DNA of 10,395 nucleotides, from the NCBI GenBank assembly GCA_003455235.1, contig DMRT01000135.1, forward strand, positions 1-10,395. The letters are read 5' to 3'. The stretch is from Chitinophagaceae bacterium (GTDB taxonomy: Bacteria; Bacteroidota; Bacteroidia; Chitinophagales; Chitinophagaceae). Every line of letters begins with the position of its first letter. Within the stretch, counting starts at the first letter, position 1. The translations under genes were made by a program, and so were the position numbers. The notes beneath the pieces were generated by a model, which saw only the letters and a list, made by a program, of their open reading frames with translations, was not told where the DNA came from and did no database searches. This document shows positions 5,311 to 10,395 of the stretch, one piece after another.

Positions 5311-6249
5311 ATGAATCAATCAACCGACATACTAAGTATTGCCCAGCGGCAGCCTGTTATGCACGACGACCTGGAGGTATTGCTGCATGTTGACCGGGTG
5401 GTGCCCGGTTCGGTGAATTATTCCATCAGGCGCTATCGCCGGCAACCGCAATGGAACATCGATGATACCGGTATCCTGGTATACCATGTGGAGAAGAACA
5501 ACCCTGCCGGCAATTATCTTGAACTGAAATTCTGCGTAAGCGGCAACGTGTATTGCCGGCAGAAGCAGACCGAATGTGATTTCTGCAAATTCAGCAGCAG
5601 CAAGAGCTGCGTGGAAAAGGTGGACAGTGTAGATGTGGTCAGCTTCAGTTTTAAACCAACATACCTTACCCAGTTCACCAACAACAGCAACCAAACCGGC
5701 TTAACGGAAGAAGTCCTTTCTTTCAGGCATAAAACGTCTTTTTCAAAACAGCTGCCTTTGTGCGGCAAAACAAGAACTGCTATTGAAGCGCTGCTGAACC
5801 ATACCTACACCGATACCCGGGAAAACATCTTCATCAATGCACAAACACAGATCCTGCTGCTGTACAGCATGGATTGCATGCTGGGCGAAGACAAGGAGAC
5901 CGGTTTTACCTGTAAATTCCTGCAAAATGCCGAAGACCGGGAAAAGATCATCAAAGCCCGGGAAGTACTGCTGCAGCACATCGGCGAGCCCATCACCATC
6001 AAAGCACTCAGCCGCAAAGTAGCGATTAACGAATGCTACCTTAAGAAAGGATTCAAAGAAATATTTGGAACCACCATCTTCGACTTTTACCAGGGCCAGC
6101 GCATGGAACATGCCAAATACCTGTTGTACGACAAAGGCCTCAGCGTTACCGAAGTTTCGATGATGCTCGGGTATTCATCCATCTCCCACTTTTCAACTGC
6201 GTTTAAAAAACACACCGGCATCAAGCCCTGCGAACTGCTGCTTCATTAA
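5311..6249 (+). CDS. AraC-family transcriptional regulator, PchR-like, with cysteine-cluster sensor domain
   Basis: 312 residues from ATG 5311. A TTG at 5293 would add six residues but lies inside the promoter element. The C-terminal third is a complete AraC DNA-binding domain. The first helix-turn-helix lies around 228-250 (ITIKALSRKVAINECYLKKG) and GTTIFDFYQGQRMEHAKYLL follows. The second lies around 277-298 (LSVTEVSMMLGYSSISHFST), closing with FKKHTGIKP. The NECYLKKGFKEIFGTT wording is typical of the PchR/YbtA branch that controls siderophore and heme receptor genes. The N-terminal ~200-residue domain is less conserved and carries Cys75, Cys82, Cys89, Cys92 and Cys100, which could bind Fe-S, heme or zinc (inference). 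The gene is divergent from gyrB and 247 bp upstream of the TonB receptor, which it probably activates under iron or heme limitation. The family is certain; the ligand is unknown. Confidence 0.92.
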   Translation: MNQSTDILSIAQRQPVMHDDLEVLLHVDRVVPGSVNYSIRRYRRQPQWNIDDTGILVYHVEKNNPAGNYLELKFCVSGNVYCRQKQTECDFCKFSSSKSCVEKVDSVDVVSFSFKPTYLTQFTNNSNQTGLTEEVLSFRHKTSFSKQLPLCGKTRTAIEALLNHTYTDTRENIFINAQTQILLLYSMDCMLGEDKETGFTCKFLQNAEDREKIIKAREVLLQHIGEPITIKALSRKVAINECYLKKGFKEIFGTTIFDFYQGQRMEHAKYLLYDKGLSVTEVSMMLGYSSISHFSTAFKKHTGIKPCELLLH

Positions 6250-6496: not shown

Positions 6497-8566
6497 ATGA
6501 AGAAACTATTTATAACCGCTGCAGCACTCGCTGGAACCGCAGCGGTTTATGCCCAGAACAAGACTGCTGATACGGCCTGGTATTCAAAAGACCTGTCGGA
6601 AGTGATTATTACCGGGCAGTACAAACCACAGTCTGTAAAAAAATCTGTTTACCAGGTACGGGTAATTAACAGTGAACGCATCAAACTCAGCGGTGCCACC
6701 AATGTACAACAGGTGCTGAATAACCAGGTGGGGTTCCGCTTTTCGAACGACAATACACTTGGCACCACCGATGTACAACTGATGGGTATGAGCGGACGCA
6801 ATGTGAAGATATTGCTCGACGGGGTGCCCATGATCGACCGCGGCGATACCCGGGAAAGCCTGAACCAGGTTGACATCAACAGCATCGAACGCATCGAAAT
6901 CGTGTAAGGTCCCATGTCGGTGATCTTCGGATCGGATGCATTGGCAGGGGTGATAAACATCATCACCAAAAAACACCAGAAAGACGATCTTTCTGTATCG
7001 GTAAAACTGCAGGAAGAAACCGCCGGAAATGAATACCATGCTTTCAACTACAAAGGGGTGCATACGCAAAACCTGAACGTTGGTTATAAGAAAAAAGACT
7101 GGTCCTTATCAGCAGGCGCCACACACAATGACTTCAACGGTTATGGCGGTGATGCGTATGGCCGCGATAAAGACTGGCTGCCAAAAGAACAATGGATGGG
7201 CAATGCCAAGATCGGTTACAGCAAGGGCGCATTCAATGCCTATTACCGCACCGACCTGCTGAATGAAGACATTAAGAGCCGGGGACCGATCAATTACAGC
7301 AACTATAAAGCCATCGATCAGCAATACATCACCGATCGTTTCTCTCACCAGTTGCAGGGCGGGTATACCTTCAACAAGAACCAACAGCTTGCCGGCATTA
7401 TAAGTTACACTGATTACAAAAGAAAGACAAAAACAACGGTGCATGACTTTGAAAAAGGAACCGATCAGCTTACCACCGGCCAGGGTGAACAGGACCTGGC
7501 GAAATTCAACAGCTTTACGTTCCGCACCAGTGTACTGTACCAGGTATCTCCCATGCTTACCCTGCAGCCGGGTGTAGACATCAACCGGGAAGAAGCAAGC
7601 GGGGAACGCATTTCCGGCACACCCGCAATTACCGACTATGCCGCTTTTGTTTCAGCAGAGATCAAACCGACCAGCCGCATCAATATCCGCCCGGGTTTGC
7701 GTTTCATCAAAAACTCCGTATACAATGCGCCGCCGGTGATCCCTTCCATCAACAGTAAATTTGTAATAAACAAAAACCTCGACCTCCGTCTCGCTTACGC
7801 ATACGGCTTCCGCTCTCCTGCCTTACGTGAACTGTATTTCAATTTTGTAGATGTGAATCACAACATTGTGGGAAACCCTAACCTGAAAGCCGAATATTCA
7901 AACAGCTTCAACAGTTCACTTAACTGGACAGCCACTCCGTCCCGGAACCTTACTTACAGTGCTTCGCTGGGAGGCTTCTTCAATGACTTCAACAACCAGA
8001 TTGATTTTGCATTGGCTGCGTCCGGAAGTAACCAATACAGTTATTTCAATGTGAACAAAGCAAAAACAACCGGTGCTGTGCTGGAAACAAAAATGGCCTG
8101 GAAGAAACTGGATGCCGGTCTGGGTTTTTCATACACCGGCTTTTACCGGAAATTGTACGACGATAAGGAATATATCAAACTGGATGATAAGGAATACCTG
8201 TGGAGCCCCGAACTGAACGCATCAATCAGTTATGCATGGGATAAAATCAAAACCAAGTTCAGCCTGTTTTATAAATACACCGGCGTCAAACCGCAATATG
8301 TTACCGGTACCAGCACCAGCGGACAGGATGTATTATACATCGCCGAAACATCCGCCTATCACCTGGCCGACTTTACCGCAAACAGCACGTTGAACAGGTA
8401 CATCAGCATCACCGCAGGTGTAAAAAATATTTTCGACGTAAATAACGTAAACAATACCGCAGCAGCATCCGGAAGCATCCATAATGCAGGTGGTGCTGTG
8501 GCAGTGAGTTACGGCCGTTCGTACTTCATTGGCCTTGCCCTTCAATGGAACAGGAAACAGAAATAA
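6497..8566 (+). pseudogene. TonB-dependent heme receptor (HmuR/HemR-like), interrupted by one in-frame stop codon
   Basis: 690 codons in one frame, broken only by TAA at 6905-6907. The protein would be an outer-membrane beta-barrel that imports heme using TonB energy. Residues 1-19 are a signal peptide (cut after VYA). A possible TonB box is SEVIITG near 34-40. The plug domain spans about 45-160 with LMGMSGRNVKILLDGVPM, IERIEIV, the stop at codon 137, then GPMSVIFGSDALAGVINIIT. The barrel fills the rest. Its FRSP (438-441), His455 and NPNL (460-463) match the FRAP/NPNL box with intervening His typical of heme receptors. The plug has no His, unlike HemR, which is reported to use one there. The barrel ends YFIGLALQWN plus a short basic tail, so the 3' end is intact. 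As read, only a 136-residue exported plug fragment would be made. The gene heads an operon with the HmuY-like gene 24 bp downstream. Confidence 0.88.
6905..6907 (+). other. In-frame TAA within the receptor plug domain
   Basis: The context reads GTG TAA GGT CCC ATG, that is V-stop-G-P-M. Relatives have Lys or Arg here (IEIVKGP or IEVVRGP), so a single A-to-T change in AAA explains it. Frame and motifs continue unbroken on both sides, so no frameshift is involved. The next in-frame ATG (6914-6916) lacks a signal peptide, so reinitiation would not yield an exported receptor. Confidence 0.9.
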
Positions 8567-9673: not shown

Positions 9674-9710
9674 AAAAGCTGCCTGTTTACATGGGCAGCT
9701 TTTTCTTTTT
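9674..9710 (+). terminator. Rho-independent terminator after the HmuY-like gene
   Basis: A perfect 10-bp stem (AAAAGCTGCC at 9674-9683 pairing with GGCAGCTTTT at 9694-9703), a 10-nt loop and a T-rich tail (TTTTCTTTTT, 9701-9710). It starts 18 nt after the stop at 9655 and closes the receptor/HmuY operon, so the next gene needs its own promoter. Confidence 0.9.
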
Positions 9711-9783
9711 GCGTAAATATCGTTCCTGAATCCGTAAGTGGCTGCCTGTGAGATTGATTTCTTTTGCAACCAAATTATACATC

Positions 9784-10395
9784 ATGGTAAAAAAGATAAT
9801 CAGCCTGGCTTTACTCACTGCCCTCCTGCAAACAGGAATAGCGCAAACCCCCGACAAAAACATCAACAAACTCTGCGGATGCTTTGAAGTGGAATTCAAA
9901 TATGCAGAAACCTTTTCACCCGATCCCAATTATAAATTTCATGAGAGAGAAATAATAAACGGCGGACTGGAGTATGTATTCCCGGTTGAAGCCGGCAACA
10001 AACGCATTGTTCTTCAGCACCTGCTGGTGATCACCGATTCGATGATCATTAAACACTGGCGGGAAGACTGGACCTATGAGAATCCCGTGATCTGGAAATA
10101 CCGGGGCAATAAAACTTGGATTAAAGAAATGCAGAAACCCGAAGCCGTGAAAGGGAAGTGGACCCAATCCATCTGGGAAGTAAGTGATGAGCCCCGTTAC
10201 CAGGGTACCAGCGAATGGATCAATGCCAATGGCGAAACTTTCTGGCTGAACAGTACCGATGCACCCCTTCCCCGCAGAGAATATTCAGTGCGGAACGATT
10301 ACAATATCCTGAACCGCACCAACCGCCTGGTGGTATCCGGCAATGGATATATTCATCAGCAGGATAATAAAAAGATCTTCCGGGAAAACGGCATT
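9784..10395 (+). CDS. Secreted protein, probably DUF6607 family (3' end outside window)
   Basis: The ATG at 9784 opens a frame that stays open to the window edge, giving 204 residues. Residues 1-20 are a signal peptide (KKIISLALLTALLQTGIA), so the protein is exported. The mature part starts with a CGC motif (Cys31, Cys33) and FEVEFKYAETFSPD, then GGLEYVFPVE, IVLQHLLVITD, IIKHWREDWTYEN, GKWTQSIWEV, LNSTDAPLPRREYS and a further His191-Gln-Gln-Asp segment. This wording matches what I recall of DUF6607, an uncharacterised Bacteroidota family. Several Trp, His and the CGC pair could bind a metal or heme, but that is inference. It follows the operon terminator, with only an imperfect -7 element (TTCTTTTG at 9759-9766) upstream. 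Its position behind the HmuY-like gene suggests a role in the same heme process. Function unknown. Confidence 0.85.
   Translation, partial: MVKKIISLALLTALLQTGIAQTPDKNINKLCGCFEVEFKYAETFSPDPNYKFHEREIINGGLEYVFPVEAGNKRIVLQHLLVITDSMIIKHWREDWTYENPVIWKYRGNKTWIKEMQKPEAVKGKWTQSIWEVSDEPRYQGTSEWINANGETFWLNSTDAPLPRREYSVRNDYNILNRTNRLVVSGNGYIHQQDNKKIFRENGI

What the first reader, a model, noticed from the sequence alone, without database searches (positions are those of the whole stretch)
6905..6907. Single in-frame TAA in an otherwise intact TonB-dependent heme receptor
The stop falls in one of the most conserved spots of the plug (IEIV-stop-GP instead of IEIVKGP). The following 552 codons have no stop, frameshift or visible decay, and the FRSP/NPNL box and final barrel strands are kept. 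Under neutral decay more damage would be expected, so the change is very recent, an assembly error, a mixed-population variant, or a tolerated or read-through stop. The downstream HmuY-like gene would lose its import partner, and polarity could lower its expression.
Basis: partly seen in the sequence, partly recalled or inferred. Interest (0 to 1): 0.75.

Follow-up and report, generated by a model that had tools for sequence, protein, structure and literature searches.

The report
Freshly broken heme receptor gene copy
One stop codon cuts an otherwise intact heme-uptake receptor gene in a draft genome of an environmental bacterium; a near-identical whole copy exists in public data, so this is most likely an ordinary, very recent loss of one gene copy, or an assembly error, and not a new way of reading stop codons.

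Summary
In detail: an in-frame TAA at 6905-6907 ends a 136-aa piece of a TonB-dependent receptor, and the next 552 codons are open.

Relatives speak against recoding: 70 of 70 other distinct copies read have a sense codon at the site, and no other copy was seen to stop there in family and order searches. No suppressor tRNA is among 13 anticodons read.

A full-length protein (P0001) that differs from the window only at the stop and two other residues exists in public data; the truncated 136-aa form is there too, on a 10,733-base contig. The change is strain-level and very young. The window is one contig of a fragmentary bin (68% complete, 346 contigs), and two further genes in 121 sampled contigs are cut by a single in-frame stop, so consensus error or strain mixing stays a real rival.

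HmuY downstream is intact; no second HmuR- or HmuY-type gene was found in the bin. Ordinary; low interest.

The parts
5311..6249 (+). AraC-type regulator (listed ORF from 5293; relatives' match begins at residue 7, hence start near 5311)
   Evidence: PF12833 71.2 bits; L032 ORF and match
6497..6907 (+). Receptor, 5' piece: signal-peptide-like start (by eye) and most of the plug, closed by the TAA
6905..6907 (+). In-frame TAA, the finding
   Evidence: sense codon in 70 of 70 other distinct copies read
6908..8566 (+). Receptor, 3' piece: 552 open codons (end of plug and whole barrel) and the normal stop; an ATG at 6914 lies 6 bases after the TAA
8591..9655 (+). HmuY-family gene, intact; lipobox-like FSAC near its start (by eye)
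   Evidence: PF14064 65.1 bits, cut-off 27; only match of the family in the bin
9674..9703 (+). Terminator-like hairpin after HmuY, 13 pairs; the whole scan found 6 such sites against 5.2 in shuffles, so it is not above chance by number

Best explanation
An ordinary HmuR-HmuY-type locus of a Ferruginibacter-like bacterium in which one strain carries a very young nonsense change in the receptor gene. Shown: the stop, the open remainder, a near-identical intact protein in public data, and a sense codon in every other copy read. Inferred: ribosomes stop after 136 aa; the exported plug fragment does nothing; any restart at ATG 6914 makes a barrel without a signal peptide, which stays inside the cell; HmuY is still made from its own start but lacks its receptor.
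For: Intact P0001 equals the window except at the stop, 296 and 473. The identical truncated 136-aa protein P0121 lies on a 10,733-base contig, a length other than the window's 10,395. Both of the other differences leave the commonest residue (96 and 78 of 116 homologs), as expected after loss of constraint, though two changes prove little. gyrB of the same contig has no residue unique at conserved columns; 29 of the 38 relatives found were used and have 0 to 6. Only the window stops at this site among the copies read.
Against: The 10,733-base contig may come from the same reads. The database shows no source for P0001 and P0121. No reads could be inspected.
Confidence: 0.57

Rival explanations
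1. The stop is an assembly or consensus error, or a minority variant pulled into the consensus from mixed strains; the dominant strain has a whole receptor.
For: Bin 68% complete in 346 contigs; two further single-stop interruptions in the 917 kb sampled (L057, L183); a nearly identical intact protein on other contigs.
Against: The truncated protein is also held on a contig of other length; gyrB of this contig looks clean; the remaining 552 codons show no second defect.
Confidence: 0.36
2. The TAA is read through or recoded and a full-length receptor is made.
For: The frame stays open for 552 codons with no other damage. The 100 nt after the stop fold somewhat better than shuffles (z -2.1, 3 of 200 at least as good).
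Against: 70 of 70 other distinct copies have a sense codon, as do 11 of 11 more; 4 of 4 relatives show no such fold (z -0.13 to 0.19); no suppressor among 13 anticodons, though the tRNA set is incomplete; TAA closes 83 of 139 long frames that end inside the 61 sampled contigs; no Rfam match in the window.
Confidence: 0.03
3. Split receptor: plug and barrel are made separately, the barrel by restart at ATG 6914, and work together.
For: The ATG lies 6 bases after the stop. Separately exported cork and barrel of FhuA are recalled to work together; the listing did not bring up that paper.
Against: The barrel product would begin MSVIFGSDALAG, with no signal peptide (by eye), and the plug is cut before its end. 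None of the copies read is arranged this way.
Confidence: 0.03

Closest known systems
HmuR-HmuY heme uptake pair (described for Porphyromonas gingivalis; start of abstract of PMC8911585 seen in the listing)
   Same: TonB-dependent receptor followed at 24 bases by an HmuY-family gene; the order receptor-HmuY holds in 13 of 14 relatives' loci examined, the 14th being cut by its contig end
   Different: Receptor interrupted by a stop here; the organism is an environmental-type Chitinophagaceae; heme as substrate is inferred, not tested
Single-nonsense young pseudogenes in bacterial genomes (general knowledge, recalled)
   Same: One stop, rest of the frame intact, whole copy in a near-identical relative
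   Different: Whether the stop is in the DNA or arose in the assembly is unknown
Programmed stop-codon read-through (general knowledge, recalled)
   Same: Open frame continues after the stop
   Different: Stop not shared by relatives, no shared RNA fold, no suppressor tRNA found

Membership tests
TonB-dependent receptor | Plug and barrel domains | tested here: met
   PF07715 on the 5' piece and PF00593 on the 3' piece, both over their cut-offs
TonB-dependent heme/hemoglobin receptor (TIGR01785) | Score over the curated cut-off 316.85 | tested here: not met
   Intact copy P0001 scores 125.2 (its best NCBIfam hit), P0002 117.2; so 'heme' rests on the HmuY neighbour and the recalled FRSP...NPNL motif
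HmuY family (PF14064) | Score over Pfam's gathering cut-off 27 | tested here: met
   65.1 bits for the gene downstream; no PDB sequence match below E 0.16, and that one is unrelated
Young nonsense pseudogene | Near-identical intact homolog; stop absent from relatives | tested here: met
   P0001
Young nonsense pseudogene | Stop truly present in the cell's DNA | not testable with these tools
   No reads available; P0121 on another contig is suggestive only
Stop-codon recoding or read-through | Stop shared by relatives | tested here: not met
   0 of 70 other distinct copies and 0 of 11 more
Stop-codon recoding or read-through | Suppressor tRNA | tested here: inconclusive
   None among 13 anticodons, but the bin is incomplete
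Stop-codon recoding or read-through | RNA element after the stop that relatives keep | tested here: not met
   z -2.1 in the window, about 0 in 4 of 4 relatives

The most novel reading that the evidence does not exclude
This plug codon is a recurrent off-switch: several lineages lose the receptor by a stop at exactly this residue, perhaps to shed an entry point for phages or bacteriocins while HmuY remains. Of 124 short plug proteins found, three end exactly here: the window's own form P0121, P0186 (about 47% identical to it, on a 12,494-base contig) and P0200 (on a 1,038-base contig). The last two may simply be cut by contig ends; their DNA could not be fetched.
Probability: 0.04. Interest if true: 0.5.

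Novelty: new member of a known kind. Interest (0 to 1): 0.12.

Why it matters
Mostly a caution: a single in-frame stop in a draft metagenome bin should be held against near-identical intact copies before recoding is invoked. If the allele is real, it is a small example of strain-level loss of a heme receptor with its partner lipoprotein left behind.

Tried and rejected
Recoding or read-through: disfavoured by relatives, fold and tRNAs. A stop shared by descent: rejected. A second HmuR-type receptor or HmuY gene in the bin: none found (besides the window only a weak match on C191, E 9.5e-5). The first coding scan of 61 contigs gave 135 candidates, most of which I take to be antisense noise; the better model gave 20 in 121 contigs, of which by eye 3 are interrupted genes, 1 (L062 at 15002, minus strand) is unclear and 16 look like gene junctions. 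That sorting is a judgement; only L057 and L183 were followed up.

Promoter-like sites around the receptor were fewer than in shuffles (2 against 5.6), so nothing was built on them. No structure prediction was run; it would not bear on the stop.

Literature (listings only, no paper opened): searches returned no papers for their terms, three and seventeen, of which ten were listed. None of the listed titles names this allele. This is no proof of absence from print.

A control rate of in-frame stops in a complete genome of the genus was not obtained. The DNA of P0001, P0121, P0186 and P0200 could not be fetched, so synonymous change and the nature of those ends are unknown.

Full report
What is there. 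The window is a whole 10,395-base contig (C50) of a draft bin, 68% complete, 346 contigs. Named relatives of the receptor are mostly metagenome genomes labelled Ferruginibacter, Chitinophagaceae or Chitinophagales; Ferruginibacter is a genus of Chitinophagaceae. Genes on the contig: the end of mfd, a DUF3857/transglutaminase-like gene (-), a 66-aa ORF (-) without a Pfam match, gyrB (-), an AraC-type regulator, the receptor, an HmuY-family gene, and a DUF6607 gene that runs off the end (the name mfd is recalled from the TRCF domain).

The observation. TAA at 6905-6907 is in frame. The piece before it is a plug domain, the piece after it a whole barrel; on TIGR01785 they end at position 107 and resume at 109, so one codon is replaced. 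The next 552 codons are open, and the FRSP...NPNL stretch is kept (its meaning is recalled). Distant receptors do have lysine: 7 of 74 copies, 2 of 78 short proteins, 2 of 11.

Relatives. The codon was read in 74 aligned copies, 71 after removing three contigs fetched twice; the window is the only stop. Several of the 71 are distant receptors (about 22-26% identity). A search of 394 family genomes with the intact homolog P0002 (only the two best candidates per genome were scored) gave matches in 121 genomes, 127 places. Of the 18 places other than the window that were flagged with stops, two have a stop inside the gene, at other positions (L134 at residue 166, L139 at 198 of P0002), and 16 show none in the aligned part or only at its very end. 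A search of 396 order genomes, overlapping the first, gave matches in 145 genomes, 148 places; all 16 flagged places other than the window were read, none with an internal stop and all with a sense codon at the site. Some places do not cover the site.

Intact and truncated versions. P0001 is 689 aa long, in a cluster of 5 sequences on 2 contigs (longest 3,955 bases), and equals the window except at the stop, 296 and 473. P0121 is the 136-aa form, identical, on one contig of 10,733 bases. Both versions are therefore held in public data; whether P0121's contig is independent of the window's reads is unknown, and the database shows no source for either.

Error or biology? For biology: the truncated form on a contig of other length; clean gyrB (0 residues unique at conserved columns; 0 to 6 in the 29 relatives used, of 38 found); the two other differences from P0001 both leave the commonest residue. 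For error: a low-completeness bin, and in 121 of 346 contigs (916,634 of 2,619,604 bases) two more genes cut by one stop: a purine nucleoside phosphorylase-like gene (L057; PF01048 profile 2-156 and 159-232) and an outer-membrane barrel (L183), where three of three close relatives examined align with both sides and leave room for just the one codon besides one unaligned residue. I put a real allele at 0.57 and error or minority variant at 0.36.

Consequences. HmuY is intact, 24 bases downstream, and follows the receptor in 13 of 14 loci examined (12 of 13 once a twice-fetched contig is removed), the remaining one being cut by its contig end. A 13-pair terminator-like hairpin lies after it, though the scan as a whole found no more such sites than shuffles (6 against 5.2). 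The two genes are probably one unit (inference). The family search found one HmuY in the bin, and the receptor searches only a weak second match (E 9.5e-5, C191); about a third of the genome is missing. If the allele is real, the strain most likely lacks this uptake route. That heme is the substrate rests on the HmuY neighbour and the motif: the intact copy stays far below the cut-off of TIGR01785 (125.2 against 316.85), and the PDB sequence matches cover mainly the plug of receptors with varied substrates.

Read-through. The 100 nt after the stop fold at z -2.1, but 4 of 4 relatives show nothing there. The 13 tRNAs read, of 14 Rfam hits, hold no suppressor. No Rfam family reaches its threshold in the window. 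I regard recoding as very unlikely.

An open coincidence. Of 124 short plug proteins from two searches, three end exactly at this residue: P0121, P0186 and P0200. Contig ends can explain the last two. It is kept as the most novel reading at 0.04.

Noticed in passing
L057 (G000:C18) about 1291, minus strand: A single in-frame TAG splits a purine nucleoside phosphorylase-like gene of the same bin (PF01048 on both sides).
   Followed up: partly
L183 (G000:C88) about 283, plus strand: A single in-frame TGA splits an outer-membrane barrel gene (PF14905); three of three close relatives examined align with both sides.
   Followed up: partly
L032:3050-5335 (minus strand): L032 has a further TonB-dependent receptor gene between the AraC-type gene and the HmuR-like gene. 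L033 and L034 have a gap of similar size there (not read); the window, L003 and L141 have only about 0.2-0.3 kb.
   Followed up: partly
P0186 and P0200 (database proteins): Two homologs, one about 47% identical to the window's piece, end at exactly the residue where the window's receptor stops; contig end or true stop is unknown.
   Followed up: partly
L134 and L139: Two other family genomes carry an in-frame stop inside the same receptor gene at other places (residues 166 and 198 of P0002).
   Followed up: no
window 9748-10395: A DUF6607 gene lies downstream of HmuY; a match also follows HmuY in L032 and L036.
   Followed up: no
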